Shown here: positions 9,933 through 63,349 of the stretch, piece after piece
Numbering within the stretch: position 1 is the stretch's first letter
Layout of the letters: each line of letters starts with the position of its first letter
Source of the DNA: Candidatus Margulisiibacteriota bacterium
Lineage (GTDB): Bacteria > Margulisbacteria > WOR-1 > JAHJIW01
Direction: 5' to 3'
Length of the DNA: 64,000 bases
NCBI GenBank assembly: GCA_018823125.1
Contig: JAHJIW010000012.1
Coordinates: 1 to 64,000 of the forward strand
Position numbers and translations under genes: made by a program
Notes under the pieces: generated by a model
Told to the model about the DNA's origin: nothing
Databases searched by the model: none
The model's input: the letters and a program-made list of their open reading frames with translations, nothing else

Positions 9933-9948
9933 ATAATTTTCCCAAAAA

Positions 9949-9978
9949 GTGAAATTTTTTACCTGCATTAACGATAGT
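9949..9978 (+). promoter_or_regulatory. Sigma-28-like promoter, site A
   Basis: GTGAAATTTT (9949-9958), 14 bases, GATAGT (9973-9978), preceded by a run of five A. In FliA-type notation it reads GAAATTTT-N11-AACGATAG. The next gene start, with its AGGAG site, is at 10022, 43 bases downstream. The same motif stands before five other units in the window. Confidence 0.7.
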
Positions 9979-10021: not shown

Positions 10022-11065
10022 ATGGCCCCAGGTTTAACTTTTCGAAATGTTCCAATCTGCAGAAAAATTAACTGGCGAACCGGCAAAATTAATTTGCCGA
10101 TGAACTTTCATTTTTCCCGGCCGGACGGGACCGGAAGGAAAAACTTTATGATTCAGGCCAGCGGTTCGGGTTTTTTAGCTTCTCCGGTCGCTTTTGGTCC
10201 GGTGGAGAAGCCGGGTAAATCACTGGTTTTGGGAGTATTGCCGGAGCATGCCCAGGTATTAGAGATTTATCCCAGAGAAGTTTTAGTAAGCAATTCGTAC
10301 GGGGCGGAAAGAACCATCGCGGAAACAACTGCGCGGGATGTGGTGGTAGGTATCCCTTACGCGATGTTGCCCGGCGATGTTTCCGGGTGCATGCGTGAGG
10401 CGGTGCAGGAAAAAAAGCTATTTCCTTTTAGGCACAGAGGAATGAGCGTAGCTTTATCGCAAGATCCGCGCACTAATCCGGCCAGCGCCAACTGGGTTTT
10501 ATTTTTACTAGGAAAGCACGAAGATGAGTGGGCCGGAAAACTTTGCTTTGCCGAGGTTTTCAGGATCAGGGATCAAGTATATTTCGCCGAACATAAAGCA
10601 CGCATAAAATTAACAGGCAGCGGTGAATATGCGGAGGACCGTGCTGCGCGGAGGGTTGATATACATTTGAAATTACAAGGCGTAGACCGTGTCCTGGGTA
10701 ACGGCCAGTCCCGGGAGCTGGATCAGATAACGGTTGATAGGAAGCCTTATTTCCGGGCCGGAAGAGAAAGCCGGGCATTCGATCAGGTCCGGATCCCATT
10801 TTTAGAACAATGGTTTTCAGCCCTTTTCGGGTTTAGCAGTGCTCAAGGATTATATGACAAATTAGCCGGGTCCCGGTTTGCTATAGATTTAAACCGTTTG
10901 CCGGTCGAGGGACCTTTCACTTTTAATTGCGTGGAGATGGTTTTTGGACGTAATATTTTCGATGCCGAGGACCGCGCGGCCGCACTCTTTTTCAGAAACG
11001 TTATCCCTCATTTAACGCCGGGCTATCACTGGGACGGCCGGGGAAAATTTGTGTTTTCCAGATAG
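10022..11065 (+). CDS. Unknown protein, member of the sigma-28-like regulon
   Basis: I do not recognise this 347-residue protein. It is soluble, without signal peptide or membrane segment, and beta-rich in its first half (residues 1-200), with many basic residues (KINWRTGKINLP, PDGTGRKNF). The last 100 residues look mixed alpha/beta (PFLEQWFSALFGF). A frame-open ATG lies at 9998, but AGGAG at 10011-10015 points to ATG 10022. It stands alone between uppP and ftsK under promoter site A. It shares no clear motif with the giant regulon proteins; only the promoter links them. Confidence 0.7.
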   Translation: MAPGLTFRNVPICRKINWRTGKINLPMNFHFSRPDGTGRKNFMIQASGSGFLASPVAFGPVEKPGKSLVLGVLPEHAQVLEIYPREVLVSNSYGAERTIAETTARDVVVGIPYAMLPGDVSGCMREAVQEKKLFPFRHRGMSVALSQDPRTNPASANWVLFLLGKHEDEWAGKLCFAEVFRIRDQVYFAEHKARIKLTGSGEYAEDRAARRVDIHLKLQGVDRVLGNGQSRELDQITVDRKPYFRAGRESRAFDQVRIPFLEQWFSALFGFSSAQGLYDKLAGSRFAIDLNRLPVEGPFTFNCVEMVFGRNIFDAEDRAAALFFRNVIPHLTPGYHWDGRGKFVFSR

Positions 11066-18954: not shown

Positions 18955-19048
18955 AGTGAAGAAAATCTTAGCAGATACGGTTGGCCTTTACAAGTAGGCT
19001 CAAAGTCAGCAAAATCAAGGCTTTCCTAATAATAATGTATGCAAAAAA

Positions 19049-19078
19049 GTGAAATTTTTAGCCATATTTTCAGATATA
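19049..19078 (+). promoter_or_regulatory. Sigma-28-like promoter, site B
   Basis: GTGAAATTTT (19049-19058), 14 bases, GATATA (19073-19078), again preceded by a run of A. It reads GAAATTTT-N11-TCAGATAT. The ATG at 19093 follows after 14 bases with a GGTGAT in between. The promoter would drive both giant genes. Confidence 0.72.
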
Positions 19079-19092: not shown

Positions 19093-21876
19093 ATGAAAAT
19101 TAGTATTGGTCGAGAATATCGAACTTTAACCGCGCAACCAACCTTGCGTTGGTATCCGCTGGTGCAGCGGATTCGCGCTGCAATGCCTCAATTTGCCCGA
19201 TTTGCTCCGGAAAGAGTGGAACGGCAACTGGAATGGACATTAATTTTTGAATCTAGAAGAACCCGAAGGGTAAATACGTACGGAAAAATAAAATTAATGC
19301 CGCTTAATCCGCGGGTCGACTTTAAAAATATGAACGGCGTACGGTCAGTGAGGCAGTTACTTAATCCATTTGATCAATTTCTGGCGAATTATGACATGTA
19401 TATACCGGATATCGTTACTCGATCGGTTATGTCGGTTGCCCGGCAGCTTGGAATAGGAACCGCGCTGTCCCGTAATGAAGTTATCTCAAATTTGATTAAT
19501 GCCGGGATATTCGGAGCACCGACTGAAAATGATAAAGAGCAAGCTGAAACTGTATTTGGTCAGGATCCCTTGTTAACGCGGGCGGTTTCAGTTGTAAGCA
19601 AAGAGCTGGGAGTGAAACCATTGGGCGGATGGCTGACCGGTTGGTACGAAGGACAAGGATATCCATGTCCAACCCGGGATCACATGGTTTCTTTTATTGA
19701 CCGTAAGCTGGGAGCAGGAGGGTTTGAAGTATGGGCCGTGCCCCGCGCAGAGGGAAGAACTGTAATTGACCGTGAATGGCACAAAATGTCGGATATTGAT
19801 ACTGCTTTCGAGAGAATTTTAACTTCAATTATTGCTTCGGTACTGGCTAATAAATCCGAAATGATGTTAATTAACGAACTTACGCGTTGGTATCAGGATT
19901 ATTTGACTTTGCTGGCAGAAACGGTAGGTCAAAAGGGACAAGCATTTAGCGCGGATGCTTTGAGCCAGCTAAACGGGGGAGTTTTATCTTTATACGAAAG
20001 GTTGAGAGTTTTAGAAAAAGCGGTCACCCAGGAAAGAAAACTAAAACGCAAAGATATTGCTTTGCCGGAATCATTTAGGCTATTAGATCGGGATGTAGTT
20101 GAAGAAATTTTAAATGATTTATTGAAAAATGCTTGCGGCTGTAAAAGTTTAAGTTATATGGCATTACCGGAAATATTAATTGTTAATAAAAGAAATTGTC
20201 CCAAAGGAATCGTTAATATTAATGGCGTAAATTATGATTTATCTCGATACGGAGATTGTCTGGTATTGCCGTTTTATGATTTTGCCAGAGTATATAACTT
20301 CCACTCTGGAGAAAGACGCGGAGATTTTACTTATGCCGGTGCGACTGCTAGTAGAGTGGTTACCCCAACCTTGCAAGAGGAAGCGCTGGATCACGTTTTT
20401 GTTGCGTCAGATAAACGCTATGCCATTAGCGTCGGAGTCAGTACCCGCGTATATTTTTATCGAAGTCGCGAATATGCCGGAAGTCAGAAAATTATGTTGG
20501 CGGATAAGATTGTTAGATTTCATGGACTATTTAACGTTTATGATCAGGGAGGTAACTTTATTGGAGCGGTTCCGGTTGACGCGCTAAATAGCGGATCGTC
20601 TCGGGGCGAACACGTCCCCGATATTTCAACCTTATTGCACGGAGCGGCACTAAGGGTGGCCAGTACCTTTTTTACCCATCGACGCATAAGATACAATTTG
20701 GTGTTTGGCGAAGGCCGATCAGATTTTGTATTTGAAGATTTTGCGGTGGATCCGGTTGATATCTGGAATTTAGGCTACGTGTACGCCAGGAAGAAAAACG
20801 CAAGAAAACGAGAATTATTAGGTGCGGTTCGTTTAAGGGATAAGCTGCCAGCAAAGGGAGCACCGCCAAAGGCAATTTTACTTAATGTACCACTTACGGA
20901 AATTGAGGCAGAGGTTCCATTGCTGGGGGCCAGAGCGCTGCGCGTTTATGAAAAGCCGGGCAATAGCACCCGATATATTCAATTAAGAAGTATGCGCATA
21001 CACCTTGGTCCCTGGGCACAACCGGGAACCTGGGCATATTTATCTCCGGATCGGCGTCAGGTACATATTATTCATCCGCGCGGCAAAGCCAGCGTGATTC
21101 CGGTTGAGCCGGATCAAGCTACGGTCCCGATTTATGCAACCCGCAGATACTCGAGCGGATTAATTCCGCGTAGTTTTATTAAGGAACCGGATACCGGAGG
21201 AGTTATTTCTCTGGAAGGTACGCGTTACGGAACCGGAAACGTTGGGCCGGTTGAATTTGTATTGATGCCGGAAGAAGGCGGATTGCCTTTTGGCAGAACC
21301 GTTGCCGGAAGATTTATTTTAGAGGGTAGCCCTTTTAGGTTTTACGGAGATGGTAACGGTGAAGTAGCGGCGTCTAGAGCGGGAAGAAAAACTAAAAGAA
21401 GAGGCGTATTCGTTGGTGATTTACTTCAGCCTTTTCAGCAATTGAAACCATCCGGTCGGCTTTTAATTGGTGGCGTGCATTACCGGGTTCCAGGTGCTTT
21501 GCAATATTTTAGAGCCTTACATGATTATGCATTATTTACCGATCGTGCCGGAAGCATTATTCAATGTGTTGATTATCGTTTGTTAGCCGAACATGGTTTG
21601 GCAAACGCTTTAGAAATTAACGCCGGAATCGAAAAATTAGAAGATATTCAAAGTTTTTCGATATACCAGATTAATCATTTGTACGAATTATTGCATCGTG
21701 CTGGCGTCAGGTTGGTGGATGTTAAGGAAGGCAACCAATTATCTTTTAGTCAGTGCTTAGCGCTTTTATCTTTTATGCGTTCTTATGAACCGCGGGAAAG
21801 ATCCCGTGCGATTGAAACGCAGCTGCGCTTTGCCGGCCGCTCATTTATTTTAAATTTAGGGTGGGGAGGAAATTAA
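19093..21876 (+). CDS. Giant unknown protein, first of a tandem paralogous pair
   Basis: No known family recognised. The 927-residue protein is soluble by sequence: no signal peptide, no membrane helix. Residues 1-340 are mostly helical; from about 360 it is beta-rich, with the segment NGVNYDLSRYGDCLVLPFYDFARVY in two pieces, a FNVYDQGGNFIGAVP repeat and, near 780, GVFVGDLLQPFQQLKPSGR. It ends with a helical stretch INHLYELLHRAGVR. These motifs recur in the same order in the next gene, so the two are paralogues. An ATG at 19039 is in frame but lies upstream of the -35 region of site B; ATG 19093 is preferred. Confidence 0.75.
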   Translation: MKISIGREYRTLTAQPTLRWYPLVQRIRAAMPQFARFAPERVERQLEWTLIFESRRTRRVNTYGKIKLMPLNPRVDFKNMNGVRSVRQLLNPFDQFLANYDMYIPDIVTRSVMSVARQLGIGTALSRNEVISNLINAGIFGAPTENDKEQAETVFGQDPLLTRAVSVVSKELGVKPLGGWLTGWYEGQGYPCPTRDHMVSFIDRKLGAGGFEVWAVPRAEGRTVIDREWHKMSDIDTAFERILTSIIASVLANKSEMMLINELTRWYQDYLTLLAETVGQKGQAFSADALSQLNGGVLSLYERLRVLEKAVTQERKLKRKDIALPESFRLLDRDVVEEILNDLLKNACGCKSLSYMALPEILIVNKRNCPKGIVNINGVNYDLSRYGDCLVLPFYDFARVYNFHSGERRGDFTYAGATASRVVTPTLQEEALDHVFVASDKRYAISVGVSTRVYFYRSREYAGSQKIMLADKIVRFHGLFNVYDQGGNFIGAVPVDALNSGSSRGEHVPDISTLLHGAALRVASTFFTHRRIRYNLVFGEGRSDFVFEDFAVDPVDIWNLGYVYARKKNARKRELLGAVRLRDKLPAKGAPPKAILLNVPLTEIEAEVPLLGARALRVYEKPGNSTRYIQLRSMRIHLGPWAQPGTWAYLSPDRRQVHIIHPRGKASVIPVEPDQATVPIYATRRYSSGLIPRSFIKEPDTGGVISLEGTRYGTGNVGPVEFVLMPEEGGLPFGRTVAGRFILEGSPFRFYGDGNGEVAASRAGRKTKRRGVFVGDLLQPFQQLKPSGRLLIGGVHYRVPGALQYFRALHDYALFTDRAGSIIQCVDYRLLAEHGLANALEINAGIEKLEDIQSFSIYQINHLYELLHRAGVRLVDVKEGNQLSFSQCLALLSFMRSYEPRERSRAIETQLRFAGRSFILNLGWGGN

Positions 21877-21879
21877 TCT

Positions 21880-24696
21880 ATGCCTTTAACCTTACACCCA
21901 ACTTCAAATATTGCTCGTCGCTTAAGGCAAACCCCGGTGGAGCGCTGGGGTTTTGTAGCCCATGCCATGGCCAGCCGGATTCCCACCCTTAAGGGAAGAG
22001 AAAGAGCCTTAATGAGTATGATCGTGGACCGGGTCAATGATGCCAAACTAGCGCGTCAATTAGATGGACCAGATAGAAGATTTCTTTTGCACGAAAGTAC
22101 GGGAGTCAGAGAGATGTTAGAGCGGGGAGAAGTAAAGGTTGAAAGAATTGTGGCTCCGAATGGAATTGTGCTGCAACGCGCGGAAAGGATTATTCCTCAC
22201 GTATTAATCTCGAGTGCCATGAAAGTTGTGGAAAGCGAAGGGCAGCCGATCAATGCCGGCCAAATTGTTGAAGGCTTAAAAGCATCAGACATTTTACAGG
22301 AAACTACGAATGGGGTGAATAACGGCACCCGGAGAATACTAACCCATGGCCAGCAAAAAGAAGAAGATCCATTTGTTGGGCATGCACAAAGACTGATGCA
22401 AAGATGGGAAAACTATGAGGTTGAAAGACATCCCGCATTACAAGAAATGAAAGTAAGTAGGTTATTGGATCTGGTAGGGGTGGTGGAAGGTCGAATTGCC
22501 CGCGGTGTCGAAAGAGGGCGATGGGAAATTTTATTCCCAAATATTTTACGTGAATTGCAGGTTGATCAAAGAAAAGAATTGCAGAAACTTACTAAGGTAC
22601 ATCGATTTTTGATGCAGTATTTTAATGCGGTTATATTGCAGGTGATTTCCGGTAAAGCGGAAATCGAAGTAGTTAACGAGACTATCCGCTGCTTTAGGGA
22701 TTATATCGATTTAATGGTAGCGGCCCGGCAGCAAAAAACCCTGGATCGCGAGTTTTGGGGGGAGTTTGAAGCACGCTTGTTACACTTGTATAGAAGATTA
22801 TCGTTGCTGTTCATTGCGGCAAAGCGTGGCCAAAGACTGGGCAGATCACATATCGTTTTTCCTTTTGCTTATCCGTCGCTGCCTGATATTCGTACTCGTA
22901 TATTAGATGATACGTTTGCTCTGGATCGGTTTGGAAGTGAAACTTTTGGCCGCTATATTGTTTTTCCGGAAAAAGTGTTTACGGTAGATAGAGGGGGGCT
23001 GGTTTATGACGGCGAAGCTGGAAAAATCAGACGGGATGGTCTGATTAAAATTAGGGGGGTAAATTACGATGTATCAGCTTTGCCAGACTGTATCATTATT
23101 CCCTGGAAAAGATTTGCCCGCGTTTATGATATTAATACCGGAGAAAGAATTGCAGAAATAAAATATCTGGGGACGGGGCCGAAAGTTCCGCCAGCTACGC
23201 CGGTCAAAGTTTATTCTAATGATGATTTTACTCCGCTTCCATTTAATGTTGAGGGCAGCCAAAAAATTACGGTTAGCATAGATAAAAGAATTAGTTTTTT
23301 ACGCAAAGAACATTCTGATCGTAATACGTTTCCTTCGCCGGCGGCTTATATAGTCTTATCTTTCGGGATTTGTAATGTTTATGATCGCGAGGGTAAATTT
23401 TTAGGAGCGGTGCCGGAAAGAGATATCGTGGTCCAACCCGGAGCAAATACCACCAATATTTCAGAGCTTTTGTGTGGAATGAACTGGAGGCAATTGAATG
23501 GGGTGGGTTTGGTTTTTCTGGACAAGGTGCAATACCGCTTAGTTAGGCAAAGAGATGTAAAGATGAAGAAAGGCAAATTGCGTTATGCGGATGATTTAGT
23601 CTGGAAAGATTTATTAGTAACACCAATTTATCCTTTTGGAGAAGTTTTGGTTTGCTCTGGAGAAAAGCGTACTTTAATTGGATCATTTCAAATGAGAGAT
23701 GCTTCTGCCGCAACCAGTGAAGCTGGCGTATTATACGTAAAATTTGATGACATGGCGGATGAAATTCCGGCTTTACGTTCCCGGGCAGTACCTGAAGTTA
23801 CAATTGGCGGAAGAAACAATTTGAATCTTTTCGGACAAACATTGTGTTTTGGCCCGTATCCTCCGGAAGGGATTACTGCTCAAGTTTTGGCGGGTGGTGA
23901 AATAAATCTTTCAACTGGCAGGACATGGTTGGGAAGAGCTACGGTAAATCCAGCTAAAAATCGTTTTGCTTATTGGGATTTAGTCCGACAGGTTCCCGGA
24001 GTAATTAGAGGAGAAATGGAGCTTTATCCACAAGCTAACGACGGGCTAGTCGGGATTTTTGCTGCCGAATACCGTACCCTGCAGAATCAACCGATTAGAG
24101 TTAAGTTAAATCCGGGAAGAGGACGCATTCCTTACGGGTACCTTGAAGAGAGAAGGTTTTTATTAGATCGGGATCCTTTTGAACCCGGCAAACGGCGTAA
24201 ATCGATATACGTTGCAGACTTACTAGCTCCTTTTGATGAAGTACAACCGGTTGATCGTTATCAATATTATCCACCAGGATTTACCGATCCAGTTACTTTA
24301 ACGGTCCCTCAAATATATGTTAACCAAGGATGGCAATTGGCGGTGGGAACCAGAGATCATTTTCTTTTTGTTGAGCGACGTACCAAAACAGTGTTGGGGC
24401 TAGCCGAGCGTGCGCTGGCGCAAAAAACGCTAAAAAGAAAAATCTTTCCAATATCTGATTACGATGGAGTTTTACCGCAGATTATGGATTTGAATGCGAT
24501 TAATGATATTCTGAGGCTCATGCATCAGGTTGGCGTAAGACCGGGCAGTACTGCCAGAGAAAAACTTCCCACTTTAAATCAACTTTCTAGATTGATGCTT
24601 TTTTCACTTGAATATGGAAATGAGGAATTAACTTACCAGCTAGCTACCAGAGGCACTCCATTTATTCATACTTTAGAGATGGGATTTCCTTTTTAG
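21880..24696 (+). CDS. Giant unknown protein, second of the tandem pair
   Basis: The 938-residue product follows its paralogue after three bases, with GGAGG before ATG. Matching elements, in order: helical N-terminal third, RGVNYDVSALPDCIIIPW and FARVYDINTGER (about 390-420), NVYDREGKFLGAVP (about 500), SIYVADLLAPFDEVQPVDR (about 770), RDHFLFVERRTKTVLGLAERAL, and INDILRLMHQVGVR near the end. Overall identity is low but the collinearity is clear, so duplication is old. The repeated NVYDxxGxFxGAVP block may be a beta-propeller or similar blade-like unit (inference). No enzymatic motif seen. Confidence 0.75.
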   Translation: MPLTLHPTSNIARRLRQTPVERWGFVAHAMASRIPTLKGRERALMSMIVDRVNDAKLARQLDGPDRRFLLHESTGVREMLERGEVKVERIVAPNGIVLQRAERIIPHVLISSAMKVVESEGQPINAGQIVEGLKASDILQETTNGVNNGTRRILTHGQQKEEDPFVGHAQRLMQRWENYEVERHPALQEMKVSRLLDLVGVVEGRIARGVERGRWEILFPNILRELQVDQRKELQKLTKVHRFLMQYFNAVILQVISGKAEIEVVNETIRCFRDYIDLMVAARQQKTLDREFWGEFEARLLHLYRRLSLLFIAAKRGQRLGRSHIVFPFAYPSLPDIRTRILDDTFALDRFGSETFGRYIVFPEKVFTVDRGGLVYDGEAGKIRRDGLIKIRGVNYDVSALPDCIIIPWKRFARVYDINTGERIAEIKYLGTGPKVPPATPVKVYSNDDFTPLPFNVEGSQKITVSIDKRISFLRKEHSDRNTFPSPAAYIVLSFGICNVYDREGKFLGAVPERDIVVQPGANTTNISELLCGMNWRQLNGVGLVFLDKVQYRLVRQRDVKMKKGKLRYADDLVWKDLLVTPIYPFGEVLVCSGEKRTLIGSFQMRDASAATSEAGVLYVKFDDMADEIPALRSRAVPEVTIGGRNNLNLFGQTLCFGPYPPEGITAQVLAGGEINLSTGRTWLGRATVNPAKNRFAYWDLVRQVPGVIRGEMELYPQANDGLVGIFAAEYRTLQNQPIRVKLNPGRGRIPYGYLEERRFLLDRDPFEPGKRRKSIYVADLLAPFDEVQPVDRYQYYPPGFTDPVTLTVPQIYVNQGWQLAVGTRDHFLFVERRTKTVLGLAERALAQKTLKRKIFPISDYDGVLPQIMDLNAINDILRLMHQVGVRPGSTAREKLPTLNQLSRLMLFSLEYGNEELTYQLATRGTPFIHTLEMGFPF

Positions 24697-24700: not shown

Positions 24701-27529
24701 TTATCTGGTCTTTTTTCTATCGCTGGGTTTCATTTTGCCTGCCGATTCCGGTTTTTCGTCTTTAACTTCTTTAATGCGGTGGCCTTTACCCCTTTTTTCT
24801 TTGAGCGGAGTAGTTTCTCTTGGTTTTATTTTAGTTTTTTCGAATATAACTTTTCCGTCAATGCCTTTAGCGAGCACTCCTTCTCCTTCTTTAAATTTAC
24901 CTTCCAGGATCTGATTGGAGAGGGGGTTTTCGATTAACTGCTGGATGGCGCGGCGCAGGGGACGGGCGCCAAATTTTGGATCGTAGCCGGTGGTTACAAT
25001 AATATCTTTGGCCGCGGCATCAATTTCCAGGGACATATTTTTTTCTTCAATCTGTAATTTAACGTCTTTTAGCAAGATATCTACAATTTGGGTTAATTGT
25101 TCTTTGGTCAGCGGATGGAAAACAATAATTTCATCAATCCGGTTTAAAAACTCAGGTCGAAAAACATGTTTGGCCTCGTCTAAAACATGCTCTTTCATTT
25201 TAGTATAGGAGGCTTCTTCGTCTTTAGCGGTAATAAAGCCTACCGGGCCTTCGCCGTGGATCATTTTTTGACCAATATTAGTGGTCATAATGATGACCGT
25301 GTTTTTAAAATCAACCACCCGGCCTTTACTATCAGTTAAGCGCCCGTCATCTAAAATTTGCAGTAGTACATTAAAGATGTCGGGGTGCGCTTTTTCAATT
25401 TCATCAAATAAAATTACCGAATAAGGTTTTCTCCGCACCGCTTCGGTTAAGCGGCCGCCTTCTTCGTAGCCCACGTATCCGGGAGGGGCGCCAATTAAAC
25501 GCGAAACCGTGTGTTTTTCCATAAATTCTGACATATCTAGTCGAATTAATGCTTCCTGGGTGCCAAACAAAAATTCCGCCAGGCGCCGTGCCACTTCGGT
25601 TTTACCTACTCCGGTAGGACCGGCAAAAATAAATGAACCAATTGGTTTTGCGGGAGGCTTTAGGCCCGCGCGTCCTCGTCGGATTGCTTGGGAAATAGCC
25701 GTAATCGCATCGTCTTGCCCGATTACTCTTTTGTGGAGCGTGTCTTCCATGTGAACCAGCTTTTCGGTTTCAGCTTCGGTAAGTTTTACTACCGGAATTC
25801 CGGTCCAGTCTGAAACCACTTCGGCAATATCGTCTTCGGTGACGGCCGCAATCCCGCCGCCTTTTTCCAATTGCCACTGGGATTCCATTTCGTTAAGCTG
25901 TCGGGATATTTCTTTGATTTTGTCTCTGAGCTCGGCGGCTTTTTCGTAATGTTGCGAGCTGAGTGCGGCTTCTTTTTCCTTGCGGGCCTTAACTAATTCT
26001 TTTTGGATGGTCCGGATTTCTTTATTTGGGGAAATTAACCGCAATCTTACTTTTGCCGCGGCTTCATCCATCAGGTCGATAGCTTTATCCGGTAAAAACC
26101 GATCAGAAATATAGCGATCGGAAAGGGTAGCGGCGGCAATGACGGCGGCATCGGGTATTTTTACCCGGTGGTGATCTTCGTATTTGTCTTTTACCCCTTT
26201 AAGAATTTGGATAGTTTCGTCTACGGTGGGTTCAACTACGTGCACCGGTTGAAATCTGCGCTCGAGAGCCGCATCTTTTTCAACATATTTGCGGTATTCA
26301 TCCACGGTTGTGGCGCCGATAACCTGTAATTCGCCGCGGGCCAGAGAAGGCTTTAAAATATTGGCGGCATCAATGGCGCCTTCGGCGCCGCCGGCACCTA
26401 CTAAAGTATGTAATTCATCGATAAATAAAATAATTTGCCTGGATTTTGAAACTATTTCTTCGAGCATCTTCTTTACTCGGGCTTCAAATTCGCCGCGGTA
26501 TTTAGTGCCGGCAACCATGCCCGCTAAATCCAGGGCAATTACTTGTTTGTCTTTAATGCTATCCGGAACTTCTCCTTTAATAATCTTATCGGCTAATCCT
26601 TCCACGATGGCGGTTTTACCAACGCCGGGGTCACCGATCAGCGCCGGATTGTTTTTAGTGCGGCGGGAAAGAATGCGGATTACGCGATCAATTTCTTTTT
26701 GGCGGCCGATGACCGGATCTAATTTATTTTCTTTTGCCAGGGCCGTTAAGTCTCTGCCAAAAGAGGCCAGCGCCGGTTTTTTAGCTTTGGGAGGTGCGGC
26801 CATTCCCGGAAAAGCAAAAAATCCTCCACCGCCGGGTATCCCTTCGATTGGGAATTCATCTTCACTAAATTCTTCGGGGCCAACTTCTTCCGGACCGCGG
26901 GCTTTTTCAATTTCGTTTAATATTTCTCTGACCGCTTTATCAAAACTGACTTTTCTTTTGTGCAGAGCCTGAGAGGCAATTGATTCTCCTTCTCTGATAA
27001 TTCCAAGTAAAAGATGTTCGGGCCCCACGTAGTTAAAACCTAATTCGCGGGCGACGTTATAAGCAATCTCCAGTACTTTTTTTGCCCGGGGAGAAAGCGT
27101 GATTTCTTTTGGGGTTTTTGCGCCGTGGCCGATTAAGGCTTCGACATCCGAAAAAAGATTAACTAAATCTACGCCTAGGGTTTTAAGTACGTTGGCAGCT
27201 AATCCGTCTTGTTTGATTAGACCTAATAAAATATGTTCGGTTCGTAAATGATCGTGCGATAGTCTTTTAGCTTCTTCACTGGCCAGGGTAATGACGCGTG
27301 AAGCATCTTCTGAAAAGTAATCAAAAATTCGATCTGCCGGACGGCGCTTGAAAAGTGAAGCAAAGATATCCGGAAAGTCAAAAAATCCCGGAAAGTTTAA
27401 GTCTTCGGGTGGAATAAACCCTAACTTGGCCGCACACTGCGTACACAGATGTTTTACCACCTTTTTTCCGTTAATTATTTTAGTGATGTGGATCGAAGCC
27501 GGATTTTTATTGCATTCTTGGCAAAGCAT
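24701..27529 (-). CDS. clpC: ClpC ATPase with N-terminal McsA-like zinc domain
   Basis: AAA+ unfoldase feeding ClpP. The 942 residues begin with a treble-clef-like head, Cys3-x2-Cys6 ... Cys29-x2-Cys32, as in McsA/UvrB-type proteins, followed by the double Clp N-domain (about 75-220), AAA module 1 (Walker A GDPGVGKTAIVEG), a middle region with a UVR-like helix (YEKAAELRDKIKEI) and AAA module 2 (GPTGVGKTEVARR; LFDEIEKAHPD). GGGAGG precedes ATG 27529; a longer frame to 27583 would overlap the promoter. In Firmicutes McsA is a separate protein activating the arginine kinase McsB; here the zinc domain is fused to ClpC. The C-terminal tail is Lys-rich. Confidence 0.93.
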   Translation of the reverse strand: MLCQECNKNPASIHITKIINGKKVVKHLCTQCAAKLGFIPPEDLNFPGFFDFPDIFASLFKRRPADRIFDYFSEDASRVITLASEEAKRLSHDHLRTEHILLGLIKQDGLAANVLKTLGVDLVNLFSDVEALIGHGAKTPKEITLSPRAKKVLEIAYNVARELGFNYVGPEHLLLGIIREGESIASQALHKRKVSFDKAVREILNEIEKARGPEEVGPEEFSEDEFPIEGIPGGGGFFAFPGMAAPPKAKKPALASFGRDLTALAKENKLDPVIGRQKEIDRVIRILSRRTKNNPALIGDPGVGKTAIVEGLADKIIKGEVPDSIKDKQVIALDLAGMVAGTKYRGEFEARVKKMLEEIVSKSRQIILFIDELHTLVGAGGAEGAIDAANILKPSLARGELQVIGATTVDEYRKYVEKDAALERRFQPVHVVEPTVDETIQILKGVKDKYEDHHRVKIPDAAVIAAATLSDRYISDRFLPDKAIDLMDEAAAKVRLRLISPNKEIRTIQKELVKARKEKEAALSSQHYEKAAELRDKIKEISRQLNEMESQWQLEKGGGIAAVTEDDIAEVVSDWTGIPVVKLTEAETEKLVHMEDTLHKRVIGQDDAITAISQAIRRGRAGLKPPAKPIGSFIFAGPTGVGKTEVARRLAEFLFGTQEALIRLDMSEFMEKHTVSRLIGAPPGYVGYEEGGRLTEAVRRKPYSVILFDEIEKAHPDIFNVLLQILDDGRLTDSKGRVVDFKNTVIIMTTNIGQKMIHGEGPVGFITAKDEEASYTKMKEHVLDEAKHVFRPEFLNRIDEIIVFHPLTKEQLTQIVDILLKDVKLQIEEKNMSLEIDAAAKDIIVTTGYDPKFGARPLRRAIQQLIENPLSNQILEGKFKEGEGVLAKGIDGKVIFEKTKIKPRETTPLKEKRGKGHRIKEVKDEKPESAGKMKPSDRKKTR

Positions 27530-27554
27530 AATTTCCCTCCCAGATAACCTATAT

Positions 27555-27583
27555 AGTATAAAAGCTGTAGCCGGATTTATCAA
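27555..27583 (-). promoter_or_regulatory. Promoter of clpC
   Basis: On the minus strand TTGATA (27583-27578) and TATACT (27560-27555) have 17-base spacing and lie 25 bases before the clpC ATG. It is divergent from sigma-28-like site C, 30 bases away. Confidence 0.7.
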
Positions 27584-27612
27584 GGCAGGGTCTGAAATTT
27601 AGCCCCTAAAAT

Positions 27613-27642
27613 GTGAAATTTTACTCTTAAAATGCCGAAATA
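27613..27642 (+). promoter_or_regulatory. Sigma-28-like promoter, site C
   Basis: GTGAAATTTT (27613-27622), 14 bases, GAAATA (27637-27642). In FliA notation GAAATTTT-N11-GCCGAAAT, the best match here to the GCC part of the sigma-28 -10. The start codon at 27661 follows with AGGTGA between. Confidence 0.7.
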
Positions 27643-27660: not shown

Positions 27661-30600
27661 ATGGCAAAAGTAAGGCAAAGGGTTCAATTTACGCAAAGAA
27701 GTAATCTAGCCCCCGGAGTACAGAGGGAGCTACAGGGGTTTTTGCATGGCGCGTCTCATGGTGTGCAAGCGCTGCAGCCTGTAAATAGACGAACATATTT
27801 AGCGCAAAGATTGGCTGGCGCACCTCCTGCTCAACAAGATATTTTACGTCGGATTTTATACGCTGACGATACTAATCATTTTAATGGATTAGTCAGGGCG
27901 GTTAGGGATCTGGAAATGTCATGTACCAAAAAAGCATTGCGCCGAAGAGAAGCGATTGTGATTTCTAACGAGGTTTTCGGGGAATTGTATGAACTGGTTG
28001 GCCGGCAGGGAATAAAGGCCAAACAATATGTAGAGGCAGTTGAATTTGGGGTAAAGATTTTTACGGTTAGAGCTACCCGCAACTTTGAAAGTGCTTTCGC
28101 GATTCTTTCAATTATATTAAAAGAATACGAAAGACTTGGTGGGGAAACCCAAAGCCGCATTAATCGTCACCTTCTTCCCTTAGTGACCAGAGATTTAGCG
28201 AGGGTTATTCCGCGCCTGGATATATACGAATTGCAGCTGCGCTTTGCTTATCTGCAGCAGGTATATCCGCATCGATATTTAAGAGAAAAAATTGATATGG
28301 CGGAAAGGCTTTTTGAGTTGTATGCCGAACCGCATGGTAAAAGGTTAGCAGCGGTAGCGTACCTGGACAATGCCTGGAAAGCACAAAGATTTATGGGTAA
28401 AGAAGGTCTGGACGCGGCAAGAGTTAGAAAAATGGCAGAGTATATACTTGATAATCATGCCGGGGCTTTGCAGCGGGCATTCATGACCGATACAGAGGAA
28501 TTAGCGGCTTTAGAAGCAGGGCAGGCGATGGTTGGGCTGGAGGGTGGATTTGAAACCTTTGTGGTATTTTTAGGCGCGTTTGGATTTGTCGATTTGCAAA
28601 AAAGAGCTTTGCTGATCCGTATGCCGCTGTTGGATGAGCCGGTTTTAGTTTATGCCCGATTATGTGAACTGGAAACGGTTCCGCTCCGGCAGACTGAAAG
28701 CGCTTATCGTGAAGCGTGTCGTCTATACAGCAAGGGAGGCATAACGTTAGACACTGAAAAAGAGATATCAGAGACGATAGCTGATCAAATAGGTGCGCAG
28801 ATAACCAAAATTTCCCGCCGATATTTCGAATCATTATTTCAGCAAAGAGGATTAAGATCGGTTGGCGCGCTTAACCAGCATGCGCCCCAATTAGAATATG
28901 CAGTTCAGTATAAACCGGCGCAGGAGTTTCCGCGTATTATGGAATTGATCAGCCGGATGAAGAAAAAAATCCTTACTTATGCGCACCGCAGTATTGCGGA
29001 CGGCAATCAATTTGCATGTATTACTAATGTGGTGACCCTGTCTGCTTCTCCCGCAGTTGATGCCAGGGTAGTTTTTATCAATATTCCTCACTCGGAAGCG
29101 GTGGAAGTTTATGTTTGCTTAGAAGTTGACGGCATTCAGGATGCGCACGTAATAAAATTTAAGTTTAGGAAAACGACTAAGGGCTTGGGCAGTTATCCTG
29201 AGTTTGCGGATGAAACCATTATTGAAGGGATAAATTTTAAACATCGCAGTAGCATCCCCCTTTGGGTTGAAGTTTATGCCCTGCGCGCATTGGAATATAC
29301 TTTACTTGCTAAATTGTCTGATAACTTGGATGTTTACTGTACTGAATTAGCAGAAACGGATCGCCAAATTATTGGTCAAATTGCCACCGCTGATTTTATT
29401 GAACAAAACCGTTCCGCATTAGAAAGTATGCAGGCTGGTTTTGAACAAGGACCATTACCCCGGGCATTTGAGGATGTGGGGGCCCAAGTGGATTTAAGCA
29501 GCCGGCTAAGAACGGCCAGAGATATTGTTAGAAATACCATCCCGGAAGTAGTTAGTGGAAATGCTCCGGTAGATGAATTAGATATTTTATATGAACTGGG
29601 AGATTCGGTGGATATTATTGAAACCGGCGAACTCAGAAGAATTATGGCTACACTTTCTCCTTCGGATGCCGCATTATTTCCAAGGCCCAATGGATCCAAT
29701 CGGCTGCCGATGGGAGTAATTTATCGTCCACGAAAAGGAAATGATGTATTTGGAGTTTTTGACACCTTTGATCGGGTAAGTATTTTAGGGGCATCCAGGA
29801 ACGGACATATTTTTGACCGCTTGTTGACCGAGCTGGCTCTACAATCGGTAGTAAAAGTTGCCATGCCGGGTGTTTCGCGAAGAGCTCGCAGCTATTCTCG
29901 TTCAAGAACCGATGGTTTTGCTGGACACGGATTTGAAGCCAATGTTACTGAGGTTCTTCAACCAGGATTAAGATATTTAGATGAAATTTATGCGACCCGG
30001 TTTTATGAAGAAGTTAGAGAGGATGGGCTTTGGGGTCGACCTTGGTTTATGCAAGATGTGGAAGGTTATTTTATGCCCGTTATTGATCCGATTGCTAGTT
30101 TAGCGGAAAGAGAAATTGACGCGGCTAAAGAAAGGGCTTTAATTCAGTACGGCCGTTCCGGAATTTTTGTGGCGGTGGGGAGAGGGCGGGGTAGTCTTCG
30201 ACGTTTGCGTCTTAGAGGAAGAAAAACCCGCCACGGAAGAGAATGGAATCCGGAAAGTCCTACCAGCCGACAATTAGAGCAACAAAATTTAATGGGCGAT
30301 AATCAAGCGTTGCCTACTCACTGGGGATTGTTTGTAATTACTTCTCTTTCGGACGGGAGAGCAATTGCCGCAAAAGTTACTTCAAGACCTACCGAAAACG
30401 AAGTATGGGGTTTAATTGATGAAGAAACTGCACGCTTAGACAATGGCGAATTTAGAAATGAAGAGTGGTTGTTGGCGCAAGTACCGGATGACGGCCGCCG
30501 AGACGCCCTGCGCGATGATTTTAGAAGCGGAAAAGTTAGCATCAGCGCTCAAACCATGGATGTAAATGAAATTAATCATACTTATGTTCTTCCCCGATTA

Positions 30601-30663
30601 GTTCCTATTTCTGAATTACTGGAAAGAGAAGATTTAGGAATTCAATTAAGAAAAGAACCGTAA
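27661..30663 (+). CDS. Giant unknown protein of the sigma-28-like regulon
   Basis: Not recognised. The 1000-residue protein has no signal peptide or membrane span. Residues 1-450 are helical and repeat-like, with alternating amphipathic helices; about 470-560 is a beta-rich block (LSASPAVDARVVFINIPHSEAVEVYVCLEVDG read in pieces); 560-1000 is mixed, with an Arg-rich patch near 835-870 (GRGRGSLRRLRLRGRKTRHGR in part) that may bind nucleic acid. A GTG at 27649 is in frame; AGGTGA at 27647-27652 favours ATG 27661. It stands alone between clpC and lemA. I see no clear match to the tandem pair. Confidence 0.72.
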   Translation: MAKVRQRVQFTQRSNLAPGVQRELQGFLHGASHGVQALQPVNRRTYLAQRLAGAPPAQQDILRRILYADDTNHFNGLVRAVRDLEMSCTKKALRRREAIVISNEVFGELYELVGRQGIKAKQYVEAVEFGVKIFTVRATRNFESAFAILSIILKEYERLGGETQSRINRHLLPLVTRDLARVIPRLDIYELQLRFAYLQQVYPHRYLREKIDMAERLFELYAEPHGKRLAAVAYLDNAWKAQRFMGKEGLDAARVRKMAEYILDNHAGALQRAFMTDTEELAALEAGQAMVGLEGGFETFVVFLGAFGFVDLQKRALLIRMPLLDEPVLVYARLCELETVPLRQTESAYREACRLYSKGGITLDTEKEISETIADQIGAQITKISRRYFESLFQQRGLRSVGALNQHAPQLEYAVQYKPAQEFPRIMELISRMKKKILTYAHRSIADGNQFACITNVVTLSASPAVDARVVFINIPHSEAVEVYVCLEVDGIQDAHVIKFKFRKTTKGLGSYPEFADETIIEGINFKHRSSIPLWVEVYALRALEYTLLAKLSDNLDVYCTELAETDRQIIGQIATADFIEQNRSALESMQAGFEQGPLPRAFEDVGAQVDLSSRLRTARDIVRNTIPEVVSGNAPVDELDILYELGDSVDIIETGELRRIMATLSPSDAALFPRPNGSNRLPMGVIYRPRKGNDVFGVFDTFDRVSILGASRNGHIFDRLLTELALQSVVKVAMPGVSRRARSYSRSRTDGFAGHGFEANVTEVLQPGLRYLDEIYATRFYEEVREDGLWGRPWFMQDVEGYFMPVIDPIASLAEREIDAAKERALIQYGRSGIFVAVGRGRGSLRRLRLRGRKTRHGREWNPESPTSRQLEQQNLMGDNQALPTHWGLFVITSLSDGRAIAAKVTSRPTENEVWGLIDEETARLDNGEFRNEEWLLAQVPDDGRRDALRDDFRSGKVSISAQTMDVNEINHTYVLPRLVPISELLEREDLGIQLRKEP

Positions 30664-32245: not shown

Positions 32246-32944
32246 TTAATTTCTGAGAAAATAAACCAAATAATAAAGATTAGCATCTGTAACTGACATG
32301 AGTGATAGTATTGGTAGATTGATATTAATTACTCCAGCATGTTTTTCTGCACTTTGTAAAGCGGCAGTTTGACCCGCACGATCAAAAGTTACCAGATCAT
32401 GGGGAAAAGGCGCAAAAACCCTCAGATAAGAATCCGGGGTCTCGGCTAAATATAATCCACAAGGTAAAATATCAACTTCTTGGTTACATTCGATCAGCGA
32501 AAAGGTAGCAACTCTGGTGTCGGGGCCTAAGCTTTTTTTAGATAACTGAGCTACTACATTATTTTGCCCTAAGCTGGCAAAGAAATCTTCATTTGGAACC
32601 CTTGCTAAAGTTATTGAGGCATCCCATAAAAAGTCTGGCGGTTGACCTTCCGCATTAAACCTTGCTTGCGGAAATTTTCCGGCCTTGACGTCAAAGGATT
32701 GGACAGGGTGGCCAGCAGGAGGGGACGAAATTTTTCGGTAAAATCCGATTGCGCCTTCTTGGATTGAGGTAGCCAAAAATTCAAAATCATTCTGGAGAAA
32801 TTGCGGGCTTCTTTGCGTCGGATGAGACGGTACCAAAATTCTGGTATTTTCCCATGGCTTAGCTACCAGAATATGTGATTTACTTCTTGAGCTGCCTTTC
32901 CCAATTAAATGTACATATAATAGCGTGCGTCCGACTGTGGGCAT
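32246..32944 (-). CDS. Unknown protein downstream of the aminotransferase
   Basis: The 232-residue product is not recognised. It has no membrane span or signal sequence; the N-terminus contains a short beta region (RTLLYVHLIGKG, SKSHILVAKPW) and the C-terminal 100 residues are hydrophobic and Leu-rich (VININLPILSLMSV, NLYYLVYFLRN). It begins 14 bases after the aminotransferase stop and so should share its sigma-28-like promoter (site D). It is a further lineage-specific protein of this regulon. Confidence 0.65.
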   Translation of the reverse strand: MPTVGRTLLYVHLIGKGSSRSKSHILVAKPWENTRILVPSHPTQRSPQFLQNDFEFLATSIQEGAIGFYRKISSPPAGHPVQSFDVKAGKFPQARFNAEGQPPDFLWDASITLARVPNEDFFASLGQNNVVAQLSKKSLGPDTRVATFSLIECNQEVDILPCGLYLAETPDSYLRVFAPFPHDLVTFDRAGQTAALQSAEKHAGVININLPILSLMSVTDANLYYLVYFLRN

Positions 32945-32958: not shown

Positions 32959-34308
32959 TTATATCGCTACCGGAAACACCCATCCGTGTCTATCTTCAGC
33001 TTGCTGGGTTTGAATGGCGGTTAAAGCTTCATAAAGTATTCGTACTGTTGGATCAACCTCGCCATTATTGAAAATTTTCTTTATATCGCCATGAGTAATT
33101 GAACCGATGGGGCTGATTACGGCTGCGGTACCGGTGCAAAAAGCCGCGGTTGCATTTTGCATTACAAAATCAATTGGGACCCTCTCATGTTCTATTACTT
33201 CATATCCTAAATCTCTGGCAATTTGGATTACGCTGGCTCGGGTAATTCCCGGTAATATTGTGCCGGTAAGTTTGGGAGTATGGATTGTATTGCCGCAAAT
33301 ACAGAAAAAGTTTGCCGCACCTACTTCTTCTACGTATTTATGTTCTTGGGCATCCAGGTAAATTACTTCAGCAAATCCAGCTGCTTTGGCTTCTTTTGCA
33401 GGCATCATACCGGGGGCGTAATTTCCACCGGCCTTTACACTACCTGATCCTCCGGGGGCGGCACGGTGATTTTTTTCACTTACAATTAAATCGATAGCAG
33501 TTAATCCACCTTTAAAATATGGTCCTACCGGTGTAACAAAAACCATAAAAGTATTTTCAGGTGCGGGCGCTACGCCAACGATTGGTCCGGATCCAATTAA
33601 TAACGGACGGATATATAAAGCACCTTTACCATGCGGTGGTATCCAACGTCGGTTGGCTCTTACCACTCGGGTTACCGCGTTTAAAAAATAATCAACCGGA
33701 ACCGAAGTAAGGCCTAACCTTTTTGCGCCATCAATCGCTCTCTTTGCGTTTTCTTTTGGTCGAAACAGAACTACATTTCCTTCGGGAGTATTTAGTGCTT
33801 TCATGCCTTCGAATAGTTGTTGTCCATAGTTTAGTGCTCCGGCGGCAGGACTAATTTCAATGTGATCAAAAGGAACAAGGGCTGAAGCAGGCCAGACGTC
33901 GCCGTTTGGAATAGTTACCTTAAACATCGCATCCGTAGGAGTAATTGAAAAAGACAAACCATCAAAGTTTATAGCTCCTTTTTGAACCAACTGTAATCGT
34001 CCTCTTACTTGAGGAACTTGTTCTAAAACTTCTTGAGCTCTTCTAAGTACCGGGCCATCAACAAAGGTTTGATTTACTGCATTGGGGTGGAGGGAGGGTT
34101 CAAGTGAAATGTGTCTAAAATCATCTAGTCTGCCTTGGGCTATGAAATGATTTGTTCCATCGGTAACGTGGTATTGTATTCCTAACCCTTCACGTTTCAT
34201 TTCTCTTACTGCCGGACTTTTTGACCCTGCCTTATAACCCATTCTGGTACGACATCCAATACGAGTGGTTCCTCTTACTTCAACTCTTTTAACTACTAAT
34301 TTACCCAT
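32959..34308 (-). CDS. Branched-chain aminotransferase, plant-like, with N-terminal extension
   Basis: Residues about 115-449 are a complete fold-type IV PLP enzyme that transaminates Leu, Ile and Val with 2-oxoglutarate: SITPTDAMFKV, IEISPAAGALNYGQQLFEGMKAL, LYIRPLLIGSG, the catalytic Lys292 in GSGSVKAGGNYAPG, EVGAANFF and SGTILPGIT-type loops. The sequence resembles eukaryotic/plant BCATs more than E. coli IlvE. Residues 1-112 form an Arg/Lys-rich extension I cannot place. The gene lies under sigma-28-like site D, not a housekeeping promoter, and is followed by an unknown protein. ilvC is elsewhere in the window, so branched-chain synthesis exists independently. Confidence 0.88.
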   Translation of the reverse strand: MGKLVVKRVEVRGTTRIGCRTRMGYKAGSKSPAVREMKREGLGIQYHVTDGTNHFIAQGRLDDFRHISLEPSLHPNAVNQTFVDGPVLRRAQEVLEQVPQVRGRLQLVQKGAINFDGLSFSITPTDAMFKVTIPNGDVWPASALVPFDHIEISPAAGALNYGQQLFEGMKALNTPEGNVVLFRPKENAKRAIDGAKRLGLTSVPVDYFLNAVTRVVRANRRWIPPHGKGALYIRPLLIGSGPIVGVAPAPENTFMVFVTPVGPYFKGGLTAIDLIVSEKNHRAAPGGSGSVKAGGNYAPGMMPAKEAKAAGFAEVIYLDAQEHKYVEEVGAANFFCICGNTIHTPKLTGTILPGITRASVIQIARDLGYEVIEHERVPIDFVMQNATAAFCTGTAAVISPIGSITHGDIKKIFNNGEVDPTVRILYEALTAIQTQQAEDRHGWVFPVAI

Positions 34309-34380: not shown

Positions 34381-34410
34381 TTTATCGGTGTTTCTGCTGG
34401 AAAATTTCAC
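34381..34410 (-). promoter_or_regulatory. Sigma-28-like promoter, site D
   Basis: Minus strand: GTGAAATTTT (34410-34401), 14 bases, GATAAA (34386-34381), preceded by six A. As GAAATTTT-N11-ACCGATAA it matches the FliA -10 consensus GCCGATAA at seven of eight positions. The aminotransferase ATG lies 72 bases downstream. Confidence 0.75.
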
Positions 34411-34449
34411 TTTTTTAGTAAGATATTTTGGCGGTTTGGCGATTTTTAA

Positions 34450-53185: not shown

Positions 53186-53188
53186 AAC

Positions 53189-56631: not shown

Positions 56632-56674
56632 AATTACATTATGACGATAAAATCAGGTAGAAAAATACATAAAA

Positions 56675-56704
56675 TTGAAATTTCAACCTAGTTTTAACGA
56701 TATA
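56675..56704 (+). promoter_or_regulatory. Sigma-28-like promoter, site E
   Basis: TTGAAATTTC (56675-56684), 14 bases, GATATA (56699-56704), one of the slightly divergent copies; the -35 is part of a perfect palindrome TTGAAATTTCAA. The AAGGAG site and ATG 56753 follow after 48 bases. Confidence 0.62.
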
Positions 56705-56752
56705 TATATGGAATGATAATTTAGTATGTTTTCGGAACAAGGAGATGCTGGA

Positions 56753-57475
56753 ATGCCTGGAAGATTAGGTTTCTCATTAAGGAAGCCAGTTGAATGGTTA
56801 AAAAAGAGGGTGGATTGCCTTAAACGCAATTCTGTGCAGCTTCAGCCCAATCAAATTAATGACCTTTTACCGGGTTTTTTGGGACGATGTGGATGGCAAC
56901 CAGGCATGCAAATCATAATTTCACGGGGTCGGCATGATTTTACGCTTACGGACCTTTCACAAATTAAAAATGGGCAAAGAATGCAGCTTTGGGATGGAGA
57001 GCCGGTGGCGATCATGAGAAGAGGAAATACTTTAACCATTGATTATTTTGAACTTCCTTCAACCTTAGCGCGTAGGACGTTCCCCTTAGATATTTCGGTA
57101 ATTGTTCCAGAAGGGTTATCCGAACGAGAAATATTTGATAGGAATCTCGAATTTGTACTTTCTCCTGAATATTCTAAAGCTCGGTTACGTGAAAGCCAGG
57201 GAGGGAATACAAGGGTAGGTGTATTAGCGGTGAATATCTTGACTACTCCTGAGGGTAGATTTGTGGAAGTGTCCAATAGTGCTAAGCTAGGATTTGAAAC
57301 GGTTACTTATGCTCACCATGAATTTGAGTTTGATGCTGTCGGACAAATCCGTATCCTTGGGGGAAAGATAGTTGATATCAAGGTGTCTTCGGAAAAAATT
57401 TGGCCGATGGCACGTGAAGTAGCAAAAACATATAATAACTGCGTAAAAGTAGCTCCAGACGGGGTAAGACTATAG
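56753..57475 (+). CDS. Unknown 240-residue protein of the sigma-28-like regulon
   Basis: No family recognised. Soluble and basic at the N-terminus (RKPVEWLKKRVDCLKRN), then beta-rich (MQIIISRGRHDFTLTDL, RMQLWDGEPVAIMRRG, FELPSTLARRTF) and alpha/beta toward the end. An ATG at 56726 is in frame, but AAGGAG at 56739-56744 fits ATG 56753. The gene sits on the opposite strand between thrS and infC, normally adjacent in bacteria, so it and the folded element are an insertion into that cluster. Convergent with thrS, the ends overlapping by six bases. Confidence 0.7.
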   Translation: MPGRLGFSLRKPVEWLKKRVDCLKRNSVQLQPNQINDLLPGFLGRCGWQPGMQIIISRGRHDFTLTDLSQIKNGQRMQLWDGEPVAIMRRGNTLTIDYFELPSTLARRTFPLDISVIVPEGLSEREIFDRNLEFVLSPEYSKARLRESQGGNTRVGVLAVNILTTPEGRFVEVSNSAKLGFETVTYAHHEFEFDAVGQIRILGGKIVDIKVSSEKIWPMAREVAKTYNNCVKVAPDGVRL

Positions 57476-63211: not shown

Positions 63212-63349
63212 GTGGGTATTATATCACAAATTGACTTGGGTGTTGAAGAGGTGAATTACAATTTAACTGATGAAAGCAAAAAAATTGATTATAAAGTGCA
63301 ATTTTTACCGGCTTATGACGATAAAGAAATGCAAGTGTGCGGTATATAG
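63212..63349 (+). CDS. Possible 45-residue peptide upstream of the EF-hand gene
   Basis: A GTG-started frame ([28 protein letters not shown] in parts) that ends in TAG overlapping the ribosome-site region of the next gene. It resembles the C-terminal end of a larger beta-rich protein rather than a full protein and has no clear ribosome site; it overlaps the ilvC promoter on the other strand. Low support. Confidence 0.3.

What the first reader, a model, noticed from the sequence alone, without database searches (positions are those of the whole stretch)
19093..24696. Tandem giant paralogues of a seemingly undescribed protein family
Two adjacent proteins of 927 and 938 residues share an ordered set of blocks (GVNYD..DC, FARVY..GER, NVYD..G.F.GAVP, VxDLLxPF, helical end) but little else. 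No catalytic, membrane or export motif appears. They are large for a compact genome (about 5.6 kb of coding), translated from one sigma-28-like promoter, and so presumably made in bulk under one condition. Structural, sheath-like or intracellular-particle roles are possible.
Basis: partly seen in the sequence, partly recalled or inferred. Interest (0 to 1): 0.7.

Follow-up and report, generated by a model that had tools for sequence, protein, structure and literature searches.

The report
Giant proteins in flagellar-type export regulon
Two large, previously undescribed sister proteins of an uncultivated bacterium are switched on by a control sequence used at roughly a hundred places in its genome and tied to a flagellum-like export machine that has no propeller, so they are probably cargo of an unrecognised protein-export system.

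Summary
The two tandem ORFs are real paralogues (25% identity over 746 aa, E 5e-45) without any match in Pfam, NCBIfam, PHROGs, PDB, phages, viral contigs or 73 other genomes of the phylum. Their importance lies in their promoter. AAAAAGTGAAATTTTT-N12-CGATA upstream of the pair recurs at about 114 sites in this 1.73-Mb genome (7 in the reversed control), nearly always between ORFs and just before a start codon. The downstream genes are mostly orphans, arginine-rich and lysine-poor, with a basic, acid-poor, non-hydrophobic N-terminus. The same promoter occurs in all 30 sampled genomes of the class (named relatives: Candidatus Saganbacteria). It sits behind flhA, before a sigma-factor gene, in this class and in another class of the phylum. 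All but one of the class genomes have a recognisable FlhA, but none has flagellin or the FliG torque domain. FlhA phylogeny separates this non-motile flagellar-type system from the motility flagellum that some relatives carry as well. In one relative, unrelated proteins (LRR, FGE-sulfatase and others) of the regulon share one N-terminal leader module. Best reading: the giant pair is lineage-specific cargo of a non-motile flagellum-derived type III export system. Regulon membership is well supported; export itself is inferred and untested.

The parts
19044..19076 (+). Promoter of the giant pair: AAAAAGTGAAATTTTT-N12-AGATA
   Evidence: same spacing (12) in 31 of 32 sites with at most one mismatch in the 16-mer
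19093..21876 (+). Giant paralogue 1 (P1), 927 aa, R 9.3% K 3.9%
21880..24696 (+). Giant paralogue 2 (P2), 938 aa, R 9.6% K 4.4%, second gene of the operon
9944..9976 (+). Same promoter upstream of an orphan gene
10022..11065 (+). Orphan regulon protein (about 347 aa from ATG 10022; ORF from GTG 9998), R-rich
   Evidence: no PHROG/NCBIfam match
27608..27640 (+). Weaker copy of the promoter (score 24.7)
27661..30663 (+). Third giant orphan (about 1000 aa), unrelated in sequence to P1/P2, R 9.8% K 3.4%
34383..34415 (-). Same promoter
32959..34308 (-). Branched-chain aminotransferase with about 110-aa N-terminal extension, regulon member
32246..32944 (-). Orphan, second gene of the aminotransferase operon
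56670..56702 (+). Promoter variant (score 22)
56726..57475 (+). Orphan R-rich regulon protein, 249 aa
59875..59908 (+). 16-mer exact but spacing 13 and AGATA -10; upstream of 59940-60452; doubtful member
63291..63323 (+). Promoter variant upstream of an EF-hand-like orphan that begins at 63353 and runs past the window end

Best explanation
P1 and P2 are lineage-specific, duplicated cargo proteins of a non-motile, flagellum-derived type III export system in a Saganbacteria-like bacterium (phylum Margulisbacteria sensu lato). A sigma factor of the sigma-28 type, encoded in the flagellar-export gene clusters, transcribes them with roughly a hundred other genes from GTGAAATTTTT-N12-CGATA promoters. 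The proteins, which lack Sec signals, are recognised by a basic, acid-poor, non-hydrophobic N-terminus and pass through the FlhA/FlhB/FliPQR gate and the rod out of the cell. Once outside they act as effectors or surface proteins. Shown: paralogy, promoter, regulon, class-wide conservation, link to flhA and sigma, absence of flagellin and torque domain, separate FlhA clade. Inferred: which sigma reads the promoter, that the leader is an export signal, that P1/P2 leave the cell, and what they do there.
For: Promoter: 114 sites at up to 1 mismatch versus 7 in the reversed control; 76 of 78 sites in the sampled regions lie outside ORFs against a 13% background, mostly 33-130 nt before a start codon. 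Class-wide: 2-109 sites in each of 30 class relatives, reversed control 0-1, median 1 in the other classes. Flagellar link: flhA-promoter-small ORF(s)-sigma order in G000 and G001 and, in another class, G037 and G047; fliA between flgJ and flgB here and in two named Saganbacteria; flagellin promoters of flagellated relatives, where readable, have the same architecture and spacing with TAAA for GAAA. Non-motile: FlhA in 30 of 31 class genomes, flagellin 0 of 31, FliG_C 0 of 31, while all 8 flagellin-bearing relatives have FliG_C and at least two FlhA matches; FliG here is 186 aa, N and M domains only. FlhA tree splits the systems at 100/100. Cargo-like: R/(R+K) 0.65 versus 0.35, p 9e-23; N-terminal 30 residues acid-, Leu- and hydrophobic-poor, Ser/Thr/Pro- and Arg-rich, 2 of 65 with an N-terminal TM-like segment versus 118 of 442. 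In relative G018, regulon proteins with unrelated bodies (LRR, FGE-sulfatase, others) share one N-terminal module of about 60 aa.
Against: No experiment or transcript. Known exported rod/hook proteins of the same genome are not R-rich (pooled R/(R+K) 0.38 versus 0.35 for cytosolic flagellar proteins), so arginine enrichment is not a direct export mark. The leader statistics are weaker in relatives: N-terminal Arg p 0.03 in G006 and G018, acid depletion not significant, R/(R+K) significant only in G018. G000 has no shared leader motif like that of G018. Some regulon genes look like ordinary cytosolic enzymes or a primary-sigma gene, and a few relatives have the promoter before housekeeping genes (topA in G018). 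P1/P2 are very large for type III cargo.
Confidence: 0.5

Rival explanations
1. The regulon is a developmental or stress programme of a non-motile cell. The flagellum-type sigma factor was recruited to run late or dormancy genes, as sigma-28 does in Chlamydia, and P1/P2 are intracellular structural or nucleoid/storage proteins that never leave the cell.
For: Regulon contains duplicated enzymes with N-terminal extensions (class II lysyl/aspartyl/asparaginyl-type aaRS, aminotransferase, UDPGP, PCMT), RelA/SpoT and Ser/Thr kinases; Chlamydia sigma-28 controls hctB and tsp without a flagellum (PMC10597470); no Sec signal in most members.
Against: The promoter is physically linked to the export gate gene flhA in two classes; members sit inside flagellar clusters; the modular N-terminal leader on unrelated bodies in G018 points to targeting; basic, non-hydrophobic N-terminal leaders are not expected of ordinary cytosolic enzymes.
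Confidence: 0.3
2. P1/P2 are exported but structural: they build a surface appendage, sheath or matrix on top of the non-motile basal body in place of flagellin.
For: Flagellin is absent while rod, rings and a short hook-type protein are present; P1/P2 are very large, with a helical part followed by many short strands in a low-confidence model.
Against: No homologue in 30 class relatives, nearly all of which carry the system, so they cannot be its conserved filament; the AlphaFold2 model is unusable (mean pLDDT 33).
Confidence: 0.14
3. P1/P2 are remnants of a mobile element or foreign acquisition that happens to have captured a host promoter.
For: No homologue in relatives; lysine/arginine usage unlike the housekeeping genes.
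Against: No phage or viral similarity where searched; the same composition is shared by dozens of unrelated regulon genes spread over the contigs between housekeeping genes.
Confidence: 0.06

Closest known systems
Buchnera flagellar basal bodies without filament or motor (PMC8109811)
   Same: Flagellar export gate, basal-body and ring genes kept; flagellin lost; proposed protein export role
   Different: Buchnera is a reduced endosymbiont with no known cargo or secreted proteins; here there is a large sigma regulon of candidate cargo, a FliG without torque domain, and the system is class-wide
Flagellar class-3 regulon of sigma-28 (FliA)
   Same: -10 CGATAA, the same -35/-10 spacing (4-15-8), sigma genes in flagellar clusters
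   Different: -35 reads GTGAAATTT instead of TAAAGTTT; targets are orphans instead of flagellin, motor and chemotaxis genes
Non-flagellar type III secretion systems, including the motility-less Myxococcales form (PMC3459982)
   Same: FlhA/FlhB/FliPQR-type export gate serving protein delivery without motility
   Different: Here rod, hook-type, P-ring and L-ring genes are of flagellar type; secretin and needle were not looked for
Salmonella SPI-2 effectors with a shared N-terminal translocation motif (recalled, not tested here)
   Same: In relative G018, unrelated bodies carry one common N-terminal module
   Different: The module was not compared with the Salmonella motif, and it was not found in G000
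Chlamydia trachomatis sigma-28 regulon (PMC10597470)
   Same: Sigma-28 kept in a bacterium without flagella
   Different: Two target genes in Chlamydia versus about a hundred promoters here

Membership tests
Any described protein family (P1/P2) | Significant match to a curated profile, phage family or solved structure | tested here: not met
   Pfam, PHROGs and NCBIfam 0 hits; PDB by sequence and by profile nothing convincing
Sigma-28 promoter | -10 GCCGATAA with 15 nt between the -35 tetramer and the -10 octamer | tested here: met
   CGATA at constant spacing in 31 of 32 sites; flagellin promoters of relatives have the same spacing
Sigma-28 promoter | -35 TAAA(GTTT) | tested here: not met
   GAAA(TTTT) preceded by GT
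Flagellar type III export apparatus | FlhA, FlhB, FliP, FliQ, FliR, FliF, FliI plus rod and ring genes | tested here: met
   Pfam for FlhA, FlhB, FliP; FliQ, FliR, FliF, FliI, FlgB/C/F/G/H/I recognised by eye from ORFs
Motile bacterial flagellum | Flagellin | tested here: not met
   PF00669 0 of 31 class genomes, 8 same-phylum genomes positive
Motile bacterial flagellum | FliG C-terminal torque domain | tested here: not met
   PF01706 0 of 31 class genomes, all 8 flagellin-bearing genomes positive
Motile bacterial flagellum | MotA/MotB stator | not tested
Injectisome (non-flagellar type III secretion system) | Secretin and needle subunit | not tested
Type III export substrate | Uncleaved, disordered, non-hydrophobic N-terminal signal | tested here: inconclusive
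   Composition fits in G000, weaker in relatives; shared N-terminal module in G018; no export assay
Phage, contractile or sheath structural protein | Similarity to phage structural families | tested here: not met
   PHROGs, phage records and viral contigs negative

The most novel reading that the evidence does not exclude
The phylum Margulisbacteria sensu lato possesses an ancient dedicated secretion system derived from the flagellum, distinct from and sometimes coexisting with its motility flagellum, and Saganbacteria have expanded its sigma regulon into tens to a hundred fast-evolving cargo proteins per genome, among them the giant pair P1/P2, delivered to neighbouring cells.
Probability: 0.35. 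Interest if true: 0.92.

Novelty: new variant of a known kind. Interest (0 to 1): 0.77.

Why it matters
It gives a testable role to dozens of 'hypothetical' genes per genome in an uncultivated class next to Cyanobacteria, for which the main genome paper in the library mentions neither flagella nor secretion (PMC6349859). A flagellar export machine kept for its transport function, with a linked sigma factor and a readable promoter, makes the candidate cargo list predictable from sequence and offers an independent case for how flagella and secretion systems convert into one another.

Tried and rejected
AlphaFold2 of P2 with P1 as the only other row: mean pLDDT 33, not used for any fold search. 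Homologue hunting for P1/P2 in viral contigs, phages, GTDB contigs and 73 other genomes of the phylum: nothing above chance; the only hit (G044, E 0.01) was discarded. The third giant orphan in the window (27661-30663) is not homologous to P1/P2, and the second giant paralogue trio (L045 x2, L096) is not a detectable distant relative either (hhalign probability 0.1). An ECF/SigW-type reading of the promoter (TGAAA..CGTA) was considered and dropped because the -10 and the spacing fit sigma-28 better and flagellin promoters of relatives have the same layout. 'Arg-rich because exported' was tested on rod and hook proteins and not supported. FliA versus the flhA-linked second sigma as cognate factor could not be decided: the second sigma is flhA-linked and preceded by the promoter in G000, G001, G037 and G047, but it is not next to flhA in several class genomes. 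The whole genome was not available as a file; about 636 kb, the window included, chosen around promoter sites, were read instead, so counts of regulon genes come from a sample biased to such sites, with a simple longest-ORF gene caller.

Full report
Observation. The two ORFs are at the stated coordinates, 3 nt apart, 927 and 938 residues. They are the only two members in the genome. No profile, phage, viral or PDB match was found, nor any relative in 30 genomes of the same class or 43 further genomes of the phylum, nor in GTDB contigs at the sensitivity of that search. AlphaFold2 on the two-row alignment failed (mean pLDDT 33). The family is therefore real, undescribed and, as far as can be seen, lineage-specific.

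The promoter is the way in. Upstream of P1 lies AAAAAGTGAAATTTTT, and the same 16-mer lies upstream of an orphan gene at 9998 and elsewhere in the window. In the whole 1.73-Mb genome the 16-mer with at most one mismatch occurs 35 times against 0 for the reversed pattern. Aligning the sites shows a second box: AAAAAGTGAAATTTTT-N12-CGATAWWW, with spacing 12 in 31 of 32 sites. The composite pattern TGAAATTT-N14-CGATA with at most one mismatch gives 114 sites against 7 for the reversed control. In the 636 kb read around such sites, 76 of 78 scored sites fall outside ORFs of at least 100 aa, against 13% expected from position alone, and most lie 33-130 nt before a start codon. This is a promoter of sigma-28 layout: counted from GAAA, the spacing to NNCGATAA is the 15 nt of FliA promoters.

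What the promoter drives. Most of the first genes are orphans. They are rich in arginine and poor in lysine (median R/(R+K) 0.65 against 0.35 for 441 other ORFs, Mann-Whitney p 9e-23). P1 and P2 are typical (R 9.3-9.6%, K 3.9-4.4%). Pfam finds domains in a minority: Ser/Thr kinases, HEAT and TPR repeats, UDPGP, PCMT, RelA/SpoT, DHH, Memo, metallo-beta-lactamase, saccharopine dehydrogenase, a class II (D, K, N) aminoacyl-tRNA synthetase, phosphoribosyl synthetase, and the aminotransferase in the window. At least two (the aminoacyl-tRNA synthetase and the phosphoribosyl synthetase) are extra copies of enzymes found elsewhere in the genome, and several carry N-terminal extensions of 110-250 residues. 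Tandem giant paralogues recur: 1009 and 1026 aa side by side (E 5e-179) with a third copy of 992 aa elsewhere, unrelated to P1/P2.

N-termini. The first 30 residues of 65 regulon proteins are depleted in acidic residues (5.1% against 8.6%), leucine and hydrophobic residues, and enriched in Arg and in Ser/Thr/Pro; 2 of 65 have a TM-like segment there against 118 of 442 others. These are not Sec signals; they fit the general description of type III export signals, which is established knowledge and not a test.

Flagellar connection. The genome has a flagellar operon with flgG, flgA, flgH, flgI, flgJ, fliA, flgB, flgC, fliE, fliF, fliG, fliH, fliI, fliJ and a second cluster with fliK, flgD, a short flgE-type gene, fliM, fliN, fliO, fliP, fliQ, fliR, flhB and flhA (Pfam support for FliK, FlgE, FliM, FliP, FlhB, both sigma factors and truncated FliG, weak for FlgD). 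Names of genes not listed for or 63 rest on my reading of the ORFs. Regulon promoters sit inside these clusters: behind flhB, before the C3 operon and about 60 bp behind flhA. In G000 and G001, and in G037 and G047 of another class, the order is flhA, promoter, small ORF, with a sigma factor of 200-209 aa one or two genes on. The fliA gene is syntenic in two named relatives, Candidatus Saganbacteria CG08_land_8_20_14_0_20_45_16 and bin.294 (64-65% identity), which places the class.

Distribution. All 30 same-class genomes have 2 to 109 copies of the promoter pattern (median about 16), reversed control 0 or 1; the 26 genomes of other classes have a median of 1, with one family (G043, G054) at 12-27. 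FlhA is found in 30 of 31 class genomes; flagellin in 0 of 31; the FliG torque domain in 0 of 31. Eight genomes of other classes have flagellin; all eight have the FliG torque domain and at least two FlhA matches. Of their flagellin genes whose upstream DNA was read, two show canonical sigma-28 promoters (TAAAGTTT-N11-ACCGACAA in L141, TAAAGATA-N11-ACCGATAA in L145).

Phylogeny of FlhA (21 sequences, IQ-TREE) separates two groups by long, fully supported branches. One holds the motility FlhA of flagellin-bearing genomes. The other holds the only full FlhA of Saganbacteria, the FlhA of flagellin-less families of other classes, and the second FlhA of the flagellin-bearing genomes, including the copies followed by the promoter and sigma gene. 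The simplest reading is an old, mostly vertically inherited, non-motile flagellar-type system, present beside a motility flagellum in some lineages and alone in others. The tree is midpoint-rooted and has no outgroup, so direction of change is not shown.

Independent support for targeting. In relative G018, regulon proteins whose bodies are unrelated (LRR repeats in L164, FGE-sulfatase domains in L170 and L167, unnamed families in L171, L132, L135) share an N-terminal module of about 60 residues, M..K.KIISFD..E.L....P......LR..G.PIAK.LIP, with pairwise E-values down to 1e-11 confined to that part for several pairs. A common N-terminal module on unrelated bodies is what a delivery signal would look like. 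G000 lacks that motif. In G018 the R/(R+K) shift is present (0.48 against 0.34, p 2e-4); in G006 (10 genes) it is not significant; acid depletion of the leader is not significant in either.

Most likely mechanism. A flagellum-linked sigma factor transcribes P1-P2 with the rest of the regulon, perhaps coupled to completion of the basal body as in canonical flagella (inferred). The products are taken by their N-termini to the FlhA/FlhB gate and exported through a rod and ring structure without a filament (inferred). Whether they then act on other cells, on the surface or in the medium is unknown. I put regulon membership of the giant pair at about 0.95, the link of the regulon to the flagellar-type system at about 0.8, and export of P1/P2 at about 0.5. 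Weak points: rod and hook proteins of the same genome are not R-rich, P1/P2 are very large, and part of the regulon looks metabolic.

Comparison with the known. Buchnera keeps filament- and motor-less basal bodies with no known cargo (PMC8109811). Chlamydia keeps sigma-28 without flagella but with two targets (PMC10597470). Non-flagellar type III systems derive from flagella, and a motility-less intermediate is proposed in Myxococcales (PMC3459982). Library searches found no description of this arrangement in Saganbacteria or Margulisbacteria; subscription papers and preprints were not covered. I file P1/P2 as a new protein family and the system as a new variant of flagellum-derived type III export, not as an injectisome and not as a motile flagellum.

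Noticed in passing
24701-27583 (-): ClpC-like AAA+ protein with an N-terminal McsA-like Cys motif (CQECNKNP...CTQCAAKLG) apparently fused in one ORF.
   Followed up: no
L170:4893-7225 and L167:7517-8632 (relative G018): Regulon proteins with FGE-sulfatase (C-type-lectin-like) bodies differ strongly near their C-termini between conserved RGGSW-like and LGFRGA-like stretches, as in targets of diversity-generating retroelements; no reverse transcriptase was looked for.
   Followed up: no
L053:41-1145 (G000 C10:158541-159644): A promoter of the regulon type precedes an RpoD-like primary sigma gene.
   Followed up: partly
L045:2911-9024 (-) and L096:12280-15258 (-): Second family of giant regulon paralogues (1009, 1026 and 992 aa), two in tandem, also without solved-structure match.
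   Followed up: partly
L049:6734-8731 (-): Extra class II (D, K, N) aminoacyl-tRNA synthetase with about 140 extra N-terminal residues in the regulon, 45% identical to a second copy in L050.
   Followed up: partly
52733-54389 (+): Run of genes with type IV prepilin-like N-termini.
   Followed up: no
G043 and G054 (other class): 27 and 12 promoter-like sites, mostly AAATGAAATTT: this family may have a related regulon.
   Followed up: no
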